Source: Trichlorobacter thiogenes (lineage in GTDB: Bacteria > Desulfobacterota > Desulfuromonadia > Geobacterales > Pseudopelobacteraceae). From it: 64,000 bases of DNA. The stretch lies in NCBI RefSeq assembly GCF_900167465.1, contig NZ_FUWR01000003.1, positions 124,001-188,000 of the forward strand, given 5' to 3'. The notes under the pieces were generated by a model. It ran no database searches and was not told where the DNA came from. It saw only the letters and a program-made list of their open reading frames with translations. Numbering within the stretch: the first letter of the stretch is position 1; every line of letters starts with the position of its first letter. Below, one piece after another: positions 24,699 through 32,261 of the stretch. Position numbers and translations under genes: made by a program.

Positions 24699-24790
24699 GC
24701 AAATACGTGGGAAAGAGTGTTTATATGTACCACTGAACACCCTGCATGGCAAGGGTGATCCCAGAAAAAACACCGGAGTATCTGATCGCA

Positions 24791-25813
24791 ATGGCCCGCA
24801 CGATTCCGTTTGATCCATCACTGCTTGAGACCCACTGTATTATTGATGCCCGCACACCGCTGGAATTTGCAGAAGACCACCTGCCCGGCGCCATCAATGT
24901 CCCGATTCTGACCGATGCTGAACGGGTGGAGATCGGCACCCTTTACAAGCAACAGGGACCACAGATAGCCCGTATCCGTGGCCTGGAACTGACCTGCCAC
25001 CGTTTTCCTGCCATTGTTGCCACCATTGCTGAAGCAGCCCAGGGACGACCAACGCTGGTCTACTGCTGGCGGGGCGGCCTGCGCAGTGAATCGATTGCCA
25101 TGCTGCTGGAGATGACCGGCTACCCGGTGGTCAAACTGGCTGGCGGCTACAAGTCGTTCCGCACAATCGTCAGCGCCTTCTTTGAGTCGGTCAGCCTGCC
25201 GGTACAGCTGGTGGTACTGCACGGCATGACCGGATCAGGCAAGACCGAGTTCCTGCAGCAGTTGCCACAGGAACGGTACACGACCATTGATCTGGAAGGG
25301 CTGGCCAGACACCGCGGTTCAGCCTTTGGCTCGCTGGGACTAGGGGAACAACCACCCCAGAAACGGTTTGAGACCCTGCTCTGGGATGCCTTCCGCAAAG
25401 CGCCAACGGACCGACCGATTGTGGTGGAGGGGGAAAGCAAACGGATCGGCCGGGTGAACCTGCCTGGCGACCTGCACGAGGTCATGGCAGCCAGCACCAA
25501 GGTCTGGTGTACTGTTTCCGTTGCAACCAGAGTCAAGCGTCTGTCTGCCGAGTATGCAAAGGAAGAATATCGCCAGCCGATGGCAGAGGCGCTGGAACGG
25601 ATCAAAAAGAAGCTGGGAGGACCGCAGTACGAGGAACTACAGCGCAAACTTGCGGCCTGGGATATTCCAGGGGTGGCCCAGGATCTGATCGAGCAGTACT
25701 ACGACAAACTCTATTACCGGGTCAGAAAGTGGGAACCGCAAGGGACCATCAGTTTGGAAGATTACCAACAGGCGGAAGAGGAACTGGCGAAGATTTGCGG
25801 TGAGGAATCGTGA
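24791..25813 (+). CDS. selU: tRNA 2-selenouridine/geranyl-2-thiouridine synthase
   Basis: 340 residues from the ATG at 24791 (MARTIPFD). Rhodanese domain 1-125 with the catalytic Cys in VYCWRGGLRS; P-loop domain with Walker A GMTGSGKT near residue 145; family end region QPMAEALERIKKKLGGPQY. Converts 2-thiouridine at the tRNA wobble position to 2-selenouridine using selenophosphate, via a geranylated intermediate. Also called mnmH/ybbB. selA is 24 kb away, so the cell uses selenium in both tRNA and protein. The earlier in-frame start at 24746 has no ribosome site. Confidence 0.96.
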   Translation: MARTIPFDPSLLETHCIIDARTPLEFAEDHLPGAINVPILTDAERVEIGTLYKQQGPQIARIRGLELTCHRFPAIVATIAEAAQGRPTLVYCWRGGLRSESIAMLLEMTGYPVVKLAGGYKSFRTIVSAFFESVSLPVQLVVLHGMTGSGKTEFLQQLPQERYTTIDLEGLARHRGSAFGSLGLGEQPPQKRFETLLWDAFRKAPTDRPIVVEGESKRIGRVNLPGDLHEVMAASTKVWCTVSVATRVKRLSAEYAKEEYRQPMAEALERIKKKLGGPQYEELQRKLAAWDIPGVAQDLIEQYYDKLYYRVRKWEPQGTISLEDYQQAEEELAKICGEES

Positions 25814-25926: not shown

Positions 25927-27336
25927 CTACGCCCAAAACGGCACATAACTGCGGTATCTGAGCGAAGTAATCGTAGGGTCTGCCAGCTTGATAATTTCAG
26001 CGTCCATCGTATCCCTGATTACCCGTGACACGGATTCCGTCTTCTTTTCAGGCAGTTTGAATCTATCGCGCAAGCTTTGGTTGGTCATCTTCTGATTCAT
26101 GACGTATCTGAGGCAACAGTGCTGATAGCAAGCCCTGATGCGGTCATTGCGATCCATCTCCTCAAATTCTTTATGTGAGAAAAGAATCGCTTTAGTGTGA
26201 CGCTCGCCAATGCGGAAATCAGGGGCGGGAAGTTGGTACACCTCAGCGGCATGGATAACCTTATCCACGCCGCTCCCTTTTTCCTCACAGATCCCCATGC
26301 GCCTCATCAAGTCGGCAAGCCGTTCATTGCGTGATTGATACTCATCGATAAAACGCTCGGGCGGGATAAACGGTTTGCCGGGGTTGGCTATCTCAATACG
26401 ATCAGAATAGATTTCAATCATGACGGAGCTGCCGCTTTCCATGAAGTCCTGATGAATCAGGGCATTTGCCACCAACTCGCGGACGGCTATCTCTGGAAAC
26501 ATCTTGACCTCATGACGCAGGGCTGTTTCGATCACCTCATTGCTGGGAATCTGTCCGTTAACAAAATCTATCAACCCTTCAAAACCAACGGCATATCCTT
26601 TGCTACCCGGCTTATCCAGACGGGTGTGCAGCTTGCTCGTGCCTTCGTACACAATCACCCGCGGTGCTTTACGGGCAAGATCGGGGAATTCGTCAAGCCG
26701 TTTTGCCAGCAGAATAGCCCCTAAACTGGTAATGCCCCACTGTTCCCCCTGTCTAACAATCAAGCGCTCGCGCTCGAAACGATCCAGAACACCCTCACGG
26801 TTAGCCGGATAGGGCAGCTTGAGCAGGTCAAAGTAGCTCTGGGAGTCCAACAATCTGACCACCTCGTCTGCACTACATCCCTGCATGGTGTTTTGCGCCA
26901 GCCAGTCCGCCTTACCCTCACTAAAGATACTGCGTAACCGGTCTTCGGTCATGGAAACCGTATCCTCAGTAGAACGCATCAGATACGCACCTTCAAACTG
27001 GTACGCGGTTCCTGCCGGTCGTGACGGAATCTGAAAGATAACCACCCTTCCGTCGGGATGGCTCACCTCTTCAACATCAACCCGAAAGCGCAGCTTTTCA
27101 AAAATCTTAGCCTGGATGTTACTGGTATTGGGGAAGGCAGTGCTGCCGACCACACGGCGCGGCTTTTTGTCGGTCACGCCAAGGATAAACCTGCCGCCAC
27201 CTTCATTTGCCAGAGCCACACAGTACCGGTACAGCTTGGTAGTGTCGTACTGGTTCTTGGCCTCCTTGAATTCAAGATGCTCGTCTTCACGGGGAGCCGC
27301 CATCAGGCGTTCTAGTTCAGGAATGCTGATGCTCAT
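25927..27336 (-). CDS. AlbA_2/Schlafen-type ATP-binding protein, partner of the STAND protein
   Basis: 469 residues. N-terminal AlbA_2 (Schlafen-like) domain: REDEHLEFKEAKN, ALANEGGGRFILGVTDK, YLMRSTEDTVSM. The middle has a winged-helix-like part (FDLLKLPYPANREGVLDRF) and then a GHKL-type ATPase (HATPase_c_4) with ELVANALIHQDF, ITIANPGKPF-like text and GICEEKGSGVDK. C-terminal winged helix. Proteins with this layout are often annotated as regulators or RecG-like helicases, but no helicase motor is seen. Its ATG overlaps the stop of the GT4-STAND gene (ATGA), so the two are co-translated. The 113-base gap to selU holds nothing clear. Confidence 0.88.
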   Translation of the reverse strand: MSISIPELERLMAAPREDEHLEFKEAKNQYDTTKLYRYCVALANEGGGRFILGVTDKKPRRVVGSTAFPNTSNIQAKIFEKLRFRVDVEEVSHPDGRVVIFQIPSRPAGTAYQFEGAYLMRSTEDTVSMTEDRLRSIFSEGKADWLAQNTMQGCSADEVVRLLDSQSYFDLLKLPYPANREGVLDRFERERLIVRQGEQWGITSLGAILLAKRLDEFPDLARKAPRVIVYEGTSKLHTRLDKPGSKGYAVGFEGLIDFVNGQIPSNEVIETALRHEVKMFPEIAVRELVANALIHQDFMESGSSVMIEIYSDRIEIANPGKPFIPPERFIDEYQSRNERLADLMRRMGICEEKGSGVDKVIHAAEVYQLPAPDFRIGERHTKAILFSHKEFEEMDRNDRIRACYQHCCLRYVMNQKMTNQSLRDRFKLPEKKTESVSRVIRDTMDAEIIKLADPTITSLRYRSYVPFWA

Positions 27337-30300
27337 GGCTGACCTGCCACAGGTATTATCGGCTCATCGGATTGTTCCGTCCAATCGGGCCACTGGAACT
27401 CCAACCGTCGCGCCACTTCCGGCATCCAGTGCGGGATGCGGCCTTGGCGTTGCTGGGCAAATTTCTGCCAGTCAGTTTGCCAAGCGAGATCGGCAACGGT
27501 CTCTGGACTATACGTAGCGCACCAAGCAACTGCGCATAGCCAATAGGGTTGAGCTTTTTTTCTGCTTGCTTGCGACAGCTCATCCCAAACGGTAATTATC
27601 TGTTTCATGGAGCTATCACGTTGTTCTAGTGTCATTGAATAGCATGCCTGTACAAAGGCAATGAACAATTGCATAAGTTGCCAACGATAAGAAAATATTG
27701 TTGGCTGTATATTATTATGAATGTTTGCCAGGCCGTAATAATCATTTAAATCATTAAGTAGCCAGCAGATAAAACCAGCTAAGCAGTTACTGCTTAACAT
27801 TTCCTCAGTAAATCGCATTGGATTTTTTTGGGCAAGTCGTTTACGAATGTTTGACGATTGTTTTGCATAATTAAGAGCGTCTTCGTATATTCCAACAGAG
27901 CATAAGCAAACGGCATAGTTATTTAGTGATGATGCATAGTCTGGCTCGTAGCGGTCTGGAGTTTTCTGAACTAGTCGCTTGTTGATTTCCAGCGCATTAT
28001 ACATAAACTCAAGAGCATCTTGATTCTGCCCGACATCACTTAAGCGATTTGCAAAGGTATTTAATGATATGGCATAGTCAGATTCATAGCGATCGGGATT
28101 ATTTTGGGCTAATTGTTTATTTATTTCCAATGATTGTCGTGCAAACATCAAGGCGGTTTCATTTTGTCCGGAATAGCTTAAGTGATTTGCATAGTCGTTT
28201 AACGACATAGCATAGGCGGGTTTATAGTTATCCGATTCTTTTTGAGCCAGCCATTTACGAATTTCCAAAGCATGATTAGCGTGGACTAGAGCCGCTTCAA
28301 GTTGCCCGGCATCACCCAAGCGGTTTGAGTAGAAGTTTAATGATGTTGAATAACTATATGCAAAGCGCTCTGAATCCAAAGAGTGCAACGACTTAAACAG
28401 TTTATATGCTTCTTTAGCACAATAAAGCGCTTGATCATTGCGACCCACCCGACGGAGTGATATCGAGTAATTCATCATTTTCCTTGCGTAATGGGCATGG
28501 TTGTCCAAATTTTGTTTTTTGTCTAATTTTTGTCGGGCTTTTTCCACAAGATACTCTTTTACCAAGCACCCCAGTACCGCGAGCTGAACCGAGTCTTGCC
28601 GTAGTTGAGGTTCCAGCAAACCGGCAACCTGGCTTTTTGCCAATGGATCCAATCTCGCAAAAGCAGTTTCTGCCACAACAGCAAAATCCCCAGCGGTCTC
28701 AATCGCCACAGTCAATACTTCCTGATTACAATGAGCAAAATTACGAGCCAGTGCCTCTGCCGCTGTCTCATGCAAATCTGGGTATTTATCTAACAATCGG
28801 GCCAGAACAGTCAGGGTGTGGAGTCGGATGCCCTGAGTAGATCCGTTTGACAGGACAGCATCCAGCAAGCGGGTTGCCTCAGAACCGGCTAGCGTTTGTG
28901 CAACCAACGCTTCACCTAACAGGTCAGGTCGTACCGCTTGCAAGCCTTGTTTGCCGGGATAGAGCGGCACCAAGGCTTTGAATAGAGAAGTAAATTCAGC
29001 GGGACTCAGCTTGTTTGCATCACTTTTATTCCAATACACCTGGGCATCTCTCGGGGTGGCAAAGCCGCCTGCCAAGGTGGTCAGCGCCAACAGTTGCTGG
29101 GCATGCTGTTCCGGTTCACTGAAAATGAAGTTGGCAAGCAAGCGACTCCAGTAACGGCGCTCGTGGTTAAGCAGCGCCCTGGTCAGTCCTTCTGCAGTGG
29201 TTGGGCGTTCGCCGTGCAGTGCCAGTAATGCCGCCATCTGCAGGTAAAGCGGTCGCCCGAAATGCTCTCCCGACAGCTCAGGCGTGACCTCCGGCACACG
29301 CACCCCCAGAGCATCGGCAAAAGCGCTCAGAGCCTGGCGGTAGGCATGACGACGGCCTTCCTCTTCTGGATGCAGCGGTAACAGCGTATATGGCCCAGTT
29401 GTGGCATAGCCGGAGAGCAAGGCTTCACAATGGGGGTCTTTACTGGGCAGATTGTCCCACCACTCCCCGCCATCACGGGCAAGCAACAGTATCCGGATAG
29501 GATGCTTGCCGGGTTGCTGTAGGATTGCTTTAACAAGGGCAAGCAGTACCGGTTGTCTGGTTTCGGCATAGTCAATAACAGCCAACACAGGCATGTCGAA
29601 AGCATGAAGTTGCTCCCAAGCCTGCTTCATCTCCCGAGGTTCCAGTAGCGCATCCAGAAAACCGGTGTGCCAACCGTTTGCCGCGCGTTGCTGGCAAAGC
29701 TCCAGAGCCAAGCGAGTCTTACCCAATCCACCCGCACCGGTAATCAACCGGACTGCGTTCGGCCATTCCCGGTCATCAAGCCAAGCATTCAAGGCATCAA
29801 GATCGGGCTGACGGGCAGGGTCAAACGGCACCAACGCCTCTTCCGCCCGCAACAACTGGCTGTCGGCCAGGCCGCTACCGGCTTTCCATTGTCTTGCAGG
29901 AATCTGTAAGGGGGAAAAGATGGTCGCTGGAGATTGGGGAGGAGGCGCAGGAGCACTCAGTACTGCTGCGATCTGTTCAGGCGTGACAGGCGGTAAACTC
30001 CCTTTCTGTACAGTCCAGCCGAACGCCTGTGTAGCCTGCTCTGCGCAATGTGGCCATGAGAATTTTGCAAGATTATTGCGTAACCGTCCTGCTATGCTAC
30101 GAGCCTTGTCCGGTTTGTGGGCAATCTCTGTAAGCTTGGCAACGACTGCCGGTAGGTCTTCTTCACGGAAATACGGATCATTGCTGGAGGCACGTACGCT
30201 AATTGAGTAGACTTCATTATCCAGGTTCAGTTCATCCAACAACCGAAACACTCCACTGTTTTCACTAATAATCAGGGGGACACCCGCCGCAATTGCCTCC

Positions 30301-31262
30301 CATGCTGCAAGACCAAAACCTTCATGCCAGGACGGCATCATTGCTACACTTGAACCGCTCAAGTCGGCATAAAGCGTCTGACGATCTTGGGTAAACGGCA
30401 AGGTGTGGAGGTTAATAACTCGTTGTGCATATTTTTCCGCAAACTGTTTAAGTTCTGTTTCAGGATTTATCTGGTTGTCCTGGAGCAATGGGGCTTCAAG
30501 ATCGACACCGCGCAATACCAGCTTGGGTTCTTTACAGAGGCCATCCGGCATGCTTTTATCACATGCTTCTCGGTGCGCCAGGGCAAAGGCGGCAATACCG
30601 AGGTATCCCTGTTTAATCCGGGCCGCGTCTTCACTGAGCCGGCCACTGAGAAATGCGGTGAATTTCTTAGGAGGTTCACGAAGCGATATTTCAGCAAGTC
30701 CCGGTATCAGCATACAAACCGGTTTTGTGGCCTCAATCATGTCACTCAATGCATCTCGCAAGAGTGGACCTATTGCCAGTACAATATCGGCCTGTTTGAA
30801 GAGTGTTGTTTGTTCTTCAACTTTTGTTCTGGCTGTTGCTGAATCTTCGGCATACGACTCGTAGTGATCGTAGCTCATGTGATGTATCAGGGCGGATCGC
30901 CCACCAGCCTGTTGTGCCGCTGCAATGGCCGCAGCCCCGGAAATTCTGTCATGGCCGAGCCATACCGTTCTGCCTGGATCAAAGCCGATATCCCGGCGTT
31001 TCAACTCATCAAGTGCTGTCTGAGCATGTGTTGTTGAAAGCTGTTTATCCGCTGGAGAATATGGAAGGGGCACCAGGGTTACGTAGGTGTTGCGTGCCTG
31101 TTCAATCTCTTCGTTAGTGGCACTGGTTACAACGCAAACAACCTGTATGCCAAGATGATAGGCAACCCCAAGGGCGCTCAGGAAATCAGTATTGAACGAA
31201 TTTATGCCGCCGTATTTGCTTCCCCATTGTGTGGCAAAAGAGATCAGAGTGTACACGGCCAC
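27333..31262 (-). CDS. GT4-like/STAND-NTPase/TPR multidomain protein
   Basis: 1309 residues, GTG start. Residues 1-420: GT-B fold resembling family 4 glycosyltransferases (KYGGIN at the start, SWHEGFGLAAWEAIAAGVP near 312 with the E-x7-E motif intact). Residues about 450-850: STAND-type P-loop NTPase with Walker A ITGAGGLGKTRLALEL near 505, Walker B PVLAVIDYAE near 563 and a helical winged part. Residues about 900-1160: at least five kinesin-light-chain-like TPRs of about 42-46 residues (for example ALEIRKWLAQK, SLEINKQLAQN, ALEINKRLVQK). The end is a helical domain. No signal peptide. Coupled to the AlbA-type ATPase downstream. The build - enzyme-like domain, switch NTPase, repeat sensor - is that of conflict and defence proteins; the function here is unproven. 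Confidence 0.88.
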   Translation of the reverse strand: MAVYTLISFATQWGSKYGGINSFNTDFLSALGVAYHLGIQVVCVVTSATNEEIEQARNTYVTLVPLPYSPADKQLSTTHAQTALDELKRRDIGFDPGRTVWLGHDRISGAAAIAAAQQAGGRSALIHHMSYDHYESYAEDSATARTKVEEQTTLFKQADIVLAIGPLLRDALSDMIEATKPVCMLIPGLAEISLREPPKKFTAFLSGRLSEDAARIKQGYLGIAAFALAHREACDKSMPDGLCKEPKLVLRGVDLEAPLLQDNQINPETELKQFAEKYAQRVINLHTLPFTQDRQTLYADLSGSSVAMMPSWHEGFGLAAWEAIAAGVPLIISENSGVFRLLDELNLDNEVYSISVRASSNDPYFREEDLPAVVAKLTEIAHKPDKARSIAGRLRNNLAKFSWPHCAEQATQAFGWTVQKGSLPPVTPEQIAAVLSAPAPPPQSPATIFSPLQIPARQWKAGSGLADSQLLRAEEALVPFDPARQPDLDALNAWLDDREWPNAVRLITGAGGLGKTRLALELCQQRAANGWHTGFLDALLEPREMKQAWEQLHAFDMPVLAVIDYAETRQPVLLALVKAILQQPGKHPIRILLLARDGGEWWDNLPSKDPHCEALLSGYATTGPYTLLPLHPEEEGRRHAYRQALSAFADALGVRVPEVTPELSGEHFGRPLYLQMAALLALHGERPTTAEGLTRALLNHERRYWSRLLANFIFSEPEQHAQQLLALTTLAGGFATPRDAQVYWNKSDANKLSPAEFTSLFKALVPLYPGKQGLQAVRPDLLGEALVAQTLAGSEATRLLDAVLSNGSTQGIRLHTLTVLARLLDKYPDLHETAAEALARNFAHCNQEVLTVAIETAGDFAVVAETAFARLDPLAKSQVAGLLEPQLRQDSVQLAVLGCLVKEYLVEKARQKLDKKQNLDNHAHYARKMMNYSISLRRVGRNDQALYCAKEAYKLFKSLHSLDSERFAYSYSTSLNFYSNRLGDAGQLEAALVHANHALEIRKWLAQKESDNYKPAYAMSLNDYANHLSYSGQNETALMFARQSLEINKQLAQNNPDRYESDYAISLNTFANRLSDVGQNQDALEFMYNALEINKRLVQKTPDRYEPDYASSLNNYAVCLCSVGIYEDALNYAKQSSNIRKRLAQKNPMRFTEEMLSSNCLAGFICWLLNDLNDYYGLANIHNNIQPTIFSYRWQLMQLFIAFVQACYSMTLEQRDSSMKQIITVWDELSQASRKKAQPYWLCAVAWCATYSPETVADLAWQTDWQKFAQQRQGRIPHWMPEVARRLEFQWPDWTEQSDEPIIPVAGQP

Positions 31263-31346: not shown

Positions 31347-32261
31347 CTACTTGGCGATACATTTTGGGAGATTACATGCCTCCCGCGCCCAGCTCAACAA
31401 CTCTGCACAGTCCGACCCACGCAGTGCATCCGGCACTGCCAGCCCAAGAAAACGCAACCCCCAGACCAACAACTCAGACTCTTTGCCCGCCACCCGTCCA
31501 TCAGCTAACGACACCGTATTGTCCCGTTTACTCAGCTTCGCCCCATCCGGTCCGGTTACCAGCGGCAGGTGGCAATAGACCGGTAACGACCAGCCCAGTA
31601 GCTGATGCAGCAAAACCTGTCGTGGAGTGGAATCCAGCAGATCATCCCCCCGCACCACTTGATTGACCCCGGTCAGGTGGTCATCCACTACCACCGCCAG
31701 CTGATAGGCAAAGAACCCCTCCGCCCGTTTGACTACAAAATCACCTGTTCGATCCAGCTCCGTAGCTATCCTGCCGTGGCGCAGATCATCAAAGGCAATC
31801 TGCATCCCATCGGTACGCAACCGCCAGGCCCGCGGTTCACGTCCGGCAGACAGACCGCTACGACAGGTGCCAGGATAGGGGATCTCTTCACCGGGGTGGG
31901 GAGCTGAGGCAGAACGGGCGATCTCAGCTCGACTGCAACCACAGGGGTAGACCGCCCCCAGCTTCTGTAGCTGTTCAAAAGACTCGGCGTAGGCAGTTCC
32001 ATTGTCGCTTTGACGCGTAATGCTACCATCCCAACAGAGCCCAAACCGCTCCATGGTCCGCAGGATATCATCCTCAAACTCCTGCCGACAACGGGGTCCA
32101 TCCAGATCATCAATCCGCAGCAACCACTGCCCGCCAGCAGCCTTAGCCATCAGCCAACTGCCAACAGCTGCCACCAAAGAACCGGTGTGCAGCGGTCCGG
32201 TGGGAGATGGGGCAAAACGACCGATGACCGGACAGGTGGTGTTAGCTCTACCCACCGTCAT
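31347..32261 (-). CDS. gluQ: Glutamyl-Q tRNA(Asp) synthetase
   Basis: 304 residues, the length of GluQRS, lacking the anticodon-binding part of GluRS. Class I signatures: GRFAPSPTGPLHTGSLVAA (HIGH region) and KLSKRDN (KMSKS). Zinc ligands in CGCSRAE and YPGTCR. Glutamylates queuosine at the tRNA(Asp) anticodon. The start lies 2 bases after the stop of the XylR-type regulator, so it is cotranscribed; the pairing looks accidental in function. Confidence 0.95.
   Translation of the reverse strand: MTVGRANTTCPVIGRFAPSPTGPLHTGSLVAAVGSWLMAKAAGGQWLLRIDDLDGPRCRQEFEDDILRTMERFGLCWDGSITRQSDNGTAYAESFEQLQKLGAVYPCGCSRAEIARSASAPHPGEEIPYPGTCRSGLSAGREPRAWRLRTDGMQIAFDDLRHGRIATELDRTGDFVVKRAEGFFAYQLAVVVDDHLTGVNQVVRGDDLLDSTPRQVLLHQLLGWSLPVYCHLPLVTGPDGAKLSKRDNTVSLADGRVAGKESELLVWGLRFLGLAVPDALRGSDCAELLSWAREACNLPKCIAK

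What the first reader, a model, noticed from the sequence alone, without database searches (positions are those of the whole stretch)
25927..31262. Two-gene GT4-STAND-TPR plus AlbA-type ATPase unit, a possible undescribed defence system
The 1309-residue protein joins an intact GT4-like domain (E-x7-E) to a STAND NTPase (Walker A and B visible) and a block of TPRs; the second gene overlaps by ATGA and combines an AlbA/Schlafen domain with a GHKL ATPase. Enzyme-like N-terminus, NTPase switch and repeat sensor is the plan of Avs/NACHT-type immune proteins. The unit sits between selU and gluQ and its TPR part is visibly AT-richer than neighbours, suggesting transfer.
Basis: partly seen in the sequence, partly recalled or inferred. 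Interest (0 to 1): 0.75.

Follow-up and report, generated by a model that had tools for sequence, protein, structure and literature searches.

The report
Recombining immune-like receptor with Schlafen partner
This bacterial gene pair looks like an immune receptor (a sugar-transferring enzyme, a molecular switch and a sensor in one protein) with a partner related to RNA-cutting enzymes, and its enzyme core and sensor appear to have been swapped between related bacteria while the switch stayed the same.

Summary
In detail: p1 (1309 aa) is GT4-conflict + P-loop STAND + TPR; p2 (469 aa, ATGA overlap) is SLFN_AlbA_2 + HATPase_c_4 + predicted winged helix. The defence reading rests on comparison only. 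The parts are known kinds: GT4-STAND fusions were predicted as counter-invader proteins in 2021, and Schlafen-kinase-wHTH proteins are reported with BREX. New here: (1) the pair recurs in four genomes of one family at three chromosomal sites; in 9 of 13 p1 loci with known downstream side p2 is absent, while p2's relatives lie by type I RM, type III RM, type IIG or BREX genes in 15 of 20 places. (2) p1 is an allelic mosaic: between the window and its nearest relative at the same site, dS is 0.05-0.07 in N-terminus and STAND block but 1.6-2.3 in GT4 core and sensor; a second pair shows the same two divergent blocks, and block trees conflict decisively for the GT4 core. (3) The STAND-TPR module occurs elsewhere behind a nucleoside-phosphorylase or probable trypsin-like domain. 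p1 loci are neither polysaccharide clusters nor evident defence islands. Best reading: an Avs-like receptor diversified by cassette recombination, with a Schlafen-type partner. New variant of a known kind.

The parts
27333..31262 (-). p1: GT4-conflict + STAND P-loop NTPase + TPR protein, 1309 aa (GTG start; a start two codons later is as likely)
30036..31241 (-). GT4-conflict glycosyltransferase domain (residues 8-409)
   Evidence: Pfam PF20706, 3.6e-81
30297..30323 (-). E-x7-E motif of the GT4 domain (E314, E322)
   Evidence: kept in 24 of 24 sequences aligned
30048..30890 (-). variable cassette 1: GT4 core, residues about 125-405
   Evidence: dS 2.25 to G014 against 0.05-0.07 on either side; conflicting tree
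28893..30005 (-). conserved STAND block, residues about 420-790
   Evidence: 99% identical to G014, dS 0.05
29715..29738 (-). Walker A GAGGLGKT (residues 509-516)
   Evidence: GGxGKT in 21 of 21 p1-type rows covering it
29562..29585 (-). Walker B LAVIDYAE (residues 560-567)
   Evidence: DY kept in 20 of 20 p1-type rows covering it
27483..28715 (-). variable cassette 2: helical/TPR sensor, residues about 850-1260, AT-rich
25927..27336 (-). p2: Schlafen/AlbA_2 + HATPase_c_4 + predicted C-terminal winged helix, 469 aa
26950..27288 (-). SLFN_AlbA_2 domain (residues 17-129) with E17, E22, D56 in the region aligned to the Schlafen nuclease triad
26185..26433 (-). HATPase_c_4 domain (residues 302-384)
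   Evidence: Pfam 1.2e-22; histidine-kinase CA-like fold
27333..27336 (-). ATGA overlap of the p1 stop and the p2 start
31347..32261 (-). gluQ, upstream flank of the insertion
24746..25813 (+). selU, downstream flank of the insertion

Best explanation
A mobile two-gene, probably anti-phage, locus. p1 works like an Avs/NLR-type receptor: its TPR sensor binds an invader-derived molecule, the STAND NTPase switches and oligomerises, and the N-terminal GT4 enzyme is activated and glycosylates a host or phage target, stopping the infection or the cell. p2 is a Schlafen-type accessory (nuclease-like domain, GHKL ATPase, winged helix) acting as a second effector or regulator of the same response. Alleles are diversified by homologous recombination that replaces the GT4 core and the sensor while the N-terminus, STAND block, C-terminal tail and p2 stay as a common frame. 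Shown by sequence: architecture, motif conservation, pair recurrence, insertion between gluQ and selU, mosaic structure. Inferred: defence role, sensing, oligomerisation, glycosylation, RNase activity, functional coupling of p1 and p2, and that selection drives the exchange.
For: Domain plan. GT4 motifs kept in 24 of 24 sequences, GGxGKT in 21 of 21 p1-type rows covering it. STAND-TPR modules like p1's lie behind other N-terminal enzymes: PNP_UDP_1 over cut-off in G565; trypsin-like in Kitasatospora just under cut-off (20.4 of 20.6 bits), no Pfam match for the N-terminus of a second such protein. Pair in G000, G014, G040, G059 at three sites, ATGA overlap in 4 of 4. gluQ-selU in 15 genus genomes: pair in 2, genes 17-41 bases apart in 3, other spacers of 0.65-5.2 kb in 3, not adjacent, on different contigs or a gene not found in 7. 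The 5.2 kb spacer of G006 holds a PADLOC candidate defence gene, PDC-S11. Mosaic: dS by block, topology tests, runs of informative sites 59 against 187 expected, 0 of 10000 shuffles as low. p2 relatives at 20 places: type I RM genes within 8 kb in 11 (in L086 it is the same, fused or decayed reading frame), type III RM in 1, BREX operon in 1, a PglX relative in 1, type IIG in 1, bSEFIR beside a p2 remnant in 1, none seen in 4. Of 58 plasmid records with p2 relatives 6 were opened: type I RM in 3, an annotated anti-phage cluster in 1, no defence gene seen in 2. The p2 profile matches SLFN13/14 and E17, E22, D56 align there.
Against: No functional data. p1 has no PADLOC match at E up to 1, and its neighbours are mostly housekeeping genes by my reading, so guilt by association rests on p2. 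Of 25 p1-type loci the downstream side is known in 13; p2 follows in 4, all in one family. The STAND domain falls below every Pfam STAND cut-off tested. The third Schlafen residue is N in 4 of 23 aligned p2 relatives, and E22 is D in 2. Fold searches of the STAND-sensor model were filled by TPR proteins; EfAvs5 came only 19th at TM 0.21. The block pattern with a divergent GT4 core is seen in 2 of 4 close pairs compared (G000/G014, G059/G040; not L042/L043 or L047/L048), and three of those four alleles are draft metagenome assemblies. dS values above about 1.5 are near saturation and rough.
Confidence: 0.62

Rival explanations
1. p1 alone is the defence gene; p2 is a passenger or a local transcription regulator acquired from a restriction locus and not part of p1's mechanism. 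(This shares the p1 half of the best explanation, so the odds overlap.)
For: No p2 follows p1 in 9 of 13 loci whose downstream side is known; p2's relatives serve restriction and BREX loci; the p1-linked p2 proteins form one clade inside an RM-linked group, i.e. perhaps one partner switch; predicted C-terminal winged helix.
Against: ATGA overlap kept in 4 of 4 pairs, the two genes are found together at three sites, and p2 is under strong constraint (dN/dS about 0.03-0.09). In the Syntrophales locus L042, another lineage, two HATPase_c_4 genes, one with SLFN_AlbA_2, lie within 3.3 kb upstream of p1.
Confidence: 0.4
2. p1 is a signalling or transcription-related STAND protein (MalT-like) for the host's own physiology, not defence.
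For: The sensor model resembles MalT domain III (Z 23.8, rmsd 3.9, 326 aligned) and Rap proteins; neighbours are housekeeping genes.
Against: Patchy presence (5 of 196 relatives, own genome included, with a long match; 3 of 395 in the phylum sample, one of these a STAND-TPR protein without GT4), different chromosomal sites, a copy cut short beside an IS-like gene in L058, allelic block replacement. TPR repeats match many unrelated proteins, so the fold match is weak evidence.
Confidence: 0.15
3. p1 is an exopolysaccharide or lipopolysaccharide glycosyltransferase.
For: GT4 fold and an intact E-x7-E.
Against: GT4-conflict matches far better than the other glycosyltransferase models (3.6e-81 against 2.8e-11 or weaker); 0 of 102 neighbouring ORFs at 23 loci resembles a glycosyltransferase at 1e-3; fusion to STAND and TPR.
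Confidence: 0.03
4. The mosaic is an assembly artefact (strain chimaeras in metagenome bins), not recombination in nature.
For: G014, G059 and G040 have the contig lengths of public metagenome assemblies, and 10 of 25 p1 loci end inside p1.
Against: The same two blocks are divergent in two pairs; the four reading frames have no internal stop; G000, a genome rated 100% complete, has a GT4 core nearer to G059 than its STAND block is (dS 0.59 against 1.34).
Confidence: 0.08

Closest known systems
GT4-STAND NTPase fusions of predicted counter-invader systems (PMC8195603, eLife 2021; section 15 read)
   Same: Conflict-type GT4 domain fused to a STAND NTPase, predicted effector and switch.
   Different: There GT4 is said to be often C-terminal; here it is N-terminal with a TPR sensor at the other end. 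The section read mentions neither an AlbA/Schlafen partner (AlbA: 0 hits in the text) nor allelic exchange of blocks.
Avs/AVAST STAND proteins
   Same: N-terminal enzyme, STAND switch, C-terminal helical repeats (plan recalled; Avs5 as a STAND defence system from the abstract start of PMC12931631 in a search listing).
   Different: No PADLOC match for p1; different enzyme; trigger unknown; only a weak fold match to EfAvs5.
STAND-TPR proteins with trypsin-like or PNP_UDP_1 N-terminus (Streptomycetaceae plasmids; genome G565)
   Same: Related STAND and TPR parts (27-35% identity over residues from about 460 to between 1130 and 1240; TPRs alone could inflate this, but the matches include the STAND part).
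   Different: Other N-terminal enzyme; in the two Streptomycetaceae loci opened a trypco2-family gene lies upstream.
Schlafen RNase + minimal histidine kinase + wHTH proteins of BREX (PMC12839542, passages read) and MloB-type genes (name from one plasmid record; its link to type I RM loci recalled)
   Same: p2 has the same domain order, and its relatives lie in such loci.
   Different: Here the neighbour is a GT4-STAND-TPR receptor, not a restriction or BREX operon.
SAMD9 (AlbA_2-type tRNase, P-loop NTPase and TPR in one animal protein; architecture recalled)
   Same: p2's N-domain matches the SAMD9 tRNase domain (Z 9.4, rmsd 3.4, 137 aligned), and SAMD9 is among the STAND-sensor Foldseek hits (rank 4).
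   Different: Two bacterial genes instead of one protein, GT4 added; the TM-score of the second match is low (0.16), so this is an analogy only.
DGR-diversified conflict-system sensors (PMC10907252, abstract start only)
   Same: Diversification of sensors in conflict systems.
   Different: Here blocks of 0.8 and 1.2 kb differ, synonymous sites included, which looks like recombination, not templated hypermutation. I did not search for a DGR.

Membership tests
GT4-conflict STAND proteins | Pfam GT4-conflict over its cut-off | tested here: met
   273.5 bits against 26; ordinary GT4 enzymes also pass this cut-off (9 of 11 places in the own genome, 14 of 14 controls)
GT4-conflict STAND proteins | STAND NTPase in the same protein | tested here: met
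   Walker A/B conserved; family models only sub-threshold
GT4-conflict STAND proteins | counter-invader activity | not testable with these tools
   prediction only, also in the section read
Pfam nSTAND_NTPase5 | score over the curated cut-off | tested here: not met
   21.8 of 34 bits; two Streptomycetaceae relatives pass with 34.6 and 39.4
Avs/AVAST | match to a PADLOC Avs model | tested here: not met
   no PADLOC family at E up to 1 for p1
Avs/AVAST | effector-STAND-helical repeat order | tested here: met
Avs/AVAST | STAND fold like solved Avs proteins | tested here: inconclusive
   EfAvs5 at Foldseek rank 19, E 1.1e-5, TM 0.21; VIA list filled by TPR proteins
Avs/AVAST | activation by a conserved phage protein | not testable with these tools
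   needs phage experiments
Schlafen-HATPase-wHTH accessory (MloB type) | SLFN_AlbA_2 then HATPase_c_4 | tested here: met
Schlafen-HATPase-wHTH accessory (MloB type) | C-terminal winged helix | tested here: inconclusive
   predicted only; residues about 390-469 match winged-helix folds with Z 8.4-9.3 over 62-73 residues, which for small helical domains is not decisive
Schlafen-HATPase-wHTH accessory (MloB type) | Schlafen nuclease triad E/E/D | tested here: met
   E17, E22, D56 in the window protein by profile alignment; D56 not constant in relatives (triad in PMC5862951, passages)
Schlafen-HATPase-wHTH accessory (MloB type) | RNase activity | not testable with these tools
   biochemistry needed
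Type I restriction-modification accessory | hsd genes in the same operon | tested here: not met
   adjacent genes are p1, selU and gluQ

The most novel reading that the evidence does not exclude
A combinatorial bacterial immune-receptor locus: a fixed STAND switch and a fixed Schlafen-type partner serve as the frame, and homologous recombination between lineages exchanges both the catalytic core of the GT4 effector and the TPR sensor, so that effector and sensor variants are re-assorted within one gene, in the way type I RM specificity domains are shuffled.
Probability: 0.42. Interest if true: 0.78.

Novelty: new variant of a known kind. Interest (0 to 1): 0.6.

Why it matters
STAND receptors are thought to keep pace with phages by changing sensors (recalled). 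Here the effector enzyme core differs block-wise between alleles as well, within one gene at one chromosomal site, so the locus offers natural chimaeras to ask which part recognises the phage, whether GT4 needs a matched sensor, and what a GT4 enzyme modifies in defence (left open in the section of PMC8195603 that I read). It also links a receptor of this type to a Schlafen-kinase-wHTH protein otherwise found beside restriction and BREX systems.

Tried and rejected
Exopolysaccharide reading: rejected. AT-rich TPR as a sign of one recent transfer: not accepted, since all four close alleles share it. Tandem DNA repeats in p1: none found by TRF in the window or in G014, although sensor length differs by whole 46-aa units in three comparisons (G000/G014 twice 46, G000/G059 92, L042/L043 46; not in G000/G040). 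Promoter and terminator scan: no more sites than in shuffles. p1 in phage records: no match; in viral contigs: no stretch matched the six patterns used.

p1 in defence islands: PADLOC over 99 neighbouring proteins (102 ORFs found at 23 of the 25 p1 loci; L044:3827-9688, L059:2-433 and L060:36-350 left out of the scan; G014 and L052 not included) gave 62 families at 1e-10, of which 25 were shown; the two matched by 2 members are pAgo-associated models that p2 itself also meets. I traced matches by rescanning 20 of the 99: those that matched are the two L042 AlbA_2/HATPase-type genes and, by my reading, DnaG, RpoD, a UvrD/Rep helicase, a DEAD-box helicase and a sigma-54 regulator. A NERD-like gene (my reading) precedes p1 in L057; its only PADLOC match is weak (PglW, 2.6e-4). 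The Pfam scan of the same 99 showed 25 of 182 families.

The sensor block does not resolve the three groupings of the four alleles; for residues 851-950 the leaning to G000+G059 is not significant (AU of the alternatives 0.15 and 0.08). The GT4-core block is seen in the Geobacter-type pairs only: L042/L043 show a faster sensor but no GT4 block, L047/L048 neither. Fold search gave no clear STAND partner; an Avs entry absent from the VIA list is not evidence against.

Literature: 10 searches. 'GT4-conflict': 0 papers; glycosyltransferase + tetratricopeptide + STAND + antiphage: 0 papers. Passages of PMC13092281, PMC12255303 and PMC6299218 were looked at and not used in the argument. Subscription papers and bioRxiv are mostly not held; the bacterial Schlafen preprint cited in PMC12839542 was not seen.

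Full report
What is there. The window carries p1 (27333-31262, minus, 1309 aa) and p2 (25927-27336, minus, 469 aa), overlapping by ATGA. p1 has GT4-conflict (residues 8-409), a P-loop NTPase region (Walker A 509-516, Walker B 560-567) and TPRs. p2 has SLFN_AlbA_2 and HATPase_c_4, and its model (mean pLDDT 86) adds a probable C-terminal winged helix. The model of p1 residues 411-1309 (mean pLDDT 81.5) is an alpha/beta NTPase-type part followed by helices and helical repeats to about residue 1287.

Relatives of p1. One scan of the species collection gave 22 loci (it reaches close relatives only); three of these (L039, L040, L041) have the contig lengths of G014, G040 and G059. With G000, G028 and G538 that makes 25 p1-type loci; in one of them (L060) GT4 is followed by an AAA/NACHT-like NTPase instead (NACHT 26.5 of 26.7 bits, AAA 26 of 21.2). 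GT4 motifs (GG loop, G-R...K-Q, E-x7-E) are kept in 24 of 24 sequences aligned, the window's own included and G538 not, and GGxGKT in 21 of 21 rows of p1 type that cover it. So enzyme and switch look maintained. p1 is rare: 5 of 196 relatives, own genome included, have a long match and 3 of 395 genomes of the phylum sample match at 1e-30, own genome included, one of them (G565) a STAND-TPR protein without GT4. No match in 50,697 phage records, none by patterns in viral contigs. In L058 p1 is cut short next to an IS30-like gene, in L045 it is cut short, and in L056 it is split in two frames (IS label by my reading).

Modularity. The STAND-TPR part of p1 matches Streptomycetaceae plasmid proteins (27.5-31% identity for the seven best). 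For two of these I looked at the N-terminus: it reads like a trypsin-type protease in both, with a Pfam match just under cut-off in one (Trypsin 20.4 of 20.6 bits) and none in the other; a trypco2-family gene lies upstream in both. A protein of G565 (35% identity over 467-1130) has a PNP_UDP_1 N-terminus (29 bits, cut-off 25.1). Different enzymes in front of one kind of switch-sensor module is the logic of conflict-system receptors.

The pair. p2 directly follows p1 in G000, G014, G040 and G059, with the same ATGA overlap in 4 of 4. G000 and G014 carry it between gluQ and selU; G059 between larB and larC genes (names by my reading; one Ni_insertion match among the neighbours); G040 between a ferredoxin-like and a UbiD-like gene with small ORFs between (my reading). 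In 9 further loci with known downstream side (G028, G538, L042, L043, L044, L051, L055, L056, L060) no p2 follows; in 2 (L045, L058) p1 is cut short, and in the other 10 the contig ends inside p1. In G062 the larB-larC site holds a bSEFIR/TIR gene, a Fic gene and a remnant of p2 (residues 378-469, 91%). In L042, outside this family, two HATPase_c_4 genes, one with SLFN_AlbA_2, lie within 3.3 kb upstream of p1; they are distant from p2 (about 31% over 115-180 residues).

Relatives of p2. p2-like proteins are common: 105 of 196 relatives match at 1e-3. I fetched 20 places: the 18 matches from 2.8e-225 to 1.1e-84 that are not p1-linked, and two C-terminal remnants. Type I RM genes lie within 8 kb in 11 (in L086 the HsdR-like match is in the same reading frame as the p2 match, in L082 and others genes are partial), type III RM in 1, a BREX operon in 1, a PglX relative in 1, type IIG in 1, bSEFIR in 1; in 4 I saw none. 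Of 58 plasmid records I opened 6: type I RM in 3, an annotated anti-phage DUF1156/PLD cluster with a TIR gene in 1, none in 2. In the tree of 23 p2-type proteins the four p1-linked ones form one clade (100/100) inside a group otherwise linked to type I and III RM (the tool warns of long branches joining, and the root is arbitrary). This fits one switch of partner from restriction to p1. Schlafen-RNase proteins with minimal histidine kinase and wHTH are reported in at least 1017 taxa near BREX and BREX-related loci (PMC12839542, passages read).

Insertion. In the genus (15 genomes, G000 included) the gluQ and selU matches lie 41, 17 and 32 bases apart in G004, G005 and G010; the pair lies between them in G000 and G014; spacers of 0.65, 0.94 and 5.2 kb lie there in G008, G011 and G006; in 7 genomes the two genes are not adjacent, on different contigs, or selU was not found. 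One gene of the G006 spacer is a PADLOC candidate defence protein, PDC-S11 (6.8e-86). So this looks like an insertion site for accessory genes.

The mosaic. Between G000 and G014, which share the site, identity per 100 bases runs 85-98% over gluQ and 91-100% over the start of p1, 58-83% over the GT4 core, 97-100% over residues about 420-750, falling to 86-92% by about 855, 45-71% over the sensor, and 85-99% in p2. Synonymous divergence (Nei-Gojobori, Jukes-Cantor; values above about 1.5 are rough) makes it plain: 0.07 (residues 1-115), 2.25 (125-405), 0.05 (420-790), 1.59 and 2.09 (851-950, 951-1255), 0.21 (1265-1309), 0.20 (p2); the flanks have 0.31 (gluQ) and 0.68 (selU, 198 codons). The pair G059/G040 shows the same order: 0.43, 2.62, 0.63, 2.13 and saturated, 0.67, 0.51. 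Constraint on the protein does not make synonymous sites jump more than thirty-fold inside one gene; replacement of blocks can. The STAND block, with 0.05, is even below the flanking genes, so it may itself have been exchanged recently. Topology tests on the four alleles reject all but (G000,G014)(G059,G040) for residues 1-115, 420-790, 1265-1309 and p2 (AU at most 0.005 for the others), and all but (G000,G059)(G014,G040) for residues 125-410 (log-likelihood difference 72, AU at most 1.2e-4). The sensor is unresolved. Informative sites for the two groupings are clustered: 59 runs against 187 expected, 0 of 10000 shuffles as low. Other close pairs do not show the GT4 block: L042/L043 only a faster sensor, L047/L048 neither.

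Reading. p1 is best read as a receptor: variable sensor, conserved switch, interchangeable enzyme. p2 is best read as a Schlafen-type accessory taken over from the restriction/BREX sphere; its E17/E22/D56 align with the region of the E/E/D residues whose change lowered or stopped SLFN13 cleavage, and its N-domain also resembles the tRNase domain of SAMD9 (Z 9.4, rmsd 3.4, 137 aligned). Whether p2 cuts RNA, and whether it acts with p1, is not shown. Why the GT4 core should be exchanged is open: escape from phage inhibitors, change of acceptor, or fit to a new sensor. G000 and G059 have similar GT4 cores (91%) with unlike sensors (51-60%), so the two blocks are not strictly tied.

Known or new. 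GT4 fused to STAND as predicted effector and switch is in print (PMC8195603, section 15 read), as is the p2 architecture with BREX. In the ten paper searches made (listings, open-access library) I noticed no report of this pair or of allelic exchange of effector and sensor in such a protein; that is a weak negative. I file it as a new variant of a known kind, not as an Avs member (PADLOC test not met), although it probably works like one.

Noticed in passing
L135:1-11001 (G006, gluQ-selU site): A 5.2 kb spacer at the same site as the window's unit holds a PADLOC candidate defence gene (PDC-S11) with a regulator-like gene (MerR-like by eye): the gluQ-selU gap may be an insertion hotspot for defence genes in this genus.
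   Followed up: partly
L095:7523-10065 (G062): bSEFIR/TIR gene, Fic gene and a 92-residue C-terminal remnant of p2 at the larB-larC site (names by eye) where G059 carries the intact p1-p2 pair.
   Followed up: partly
L042:6727-9946: Upstream of p1 in a Syntrophales bin: an AlbA_2-HATPase gene, a DUF4062-HATPase gene and an XRE-like gene (by eye), an apparently separate association of p1 with Schlafen-like genes.
   Followed up: partly
L065:5966-9403 (G107): Reverse architecture: N-terminal P-loop-like region (AAA_22, weak) and C-terminal GT4-conflict domain (2.8e-143), as reported for other GT4-STAND proteins.
   Followed up: no
L090:3550-18000 (G130): A BREX operon (BrxB, BrxC, PglX, PglZ) with a p2-type Schlafen gene between BrxC and PglX.
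   Followed up: partly
L097:10120-10404 and L095:9751-10065: Decayed p2 copies of which only the C-terminal part (about 92-96 residues, the winged-helix region) remains, in two genomes; reason unknown.
   Followed up: no
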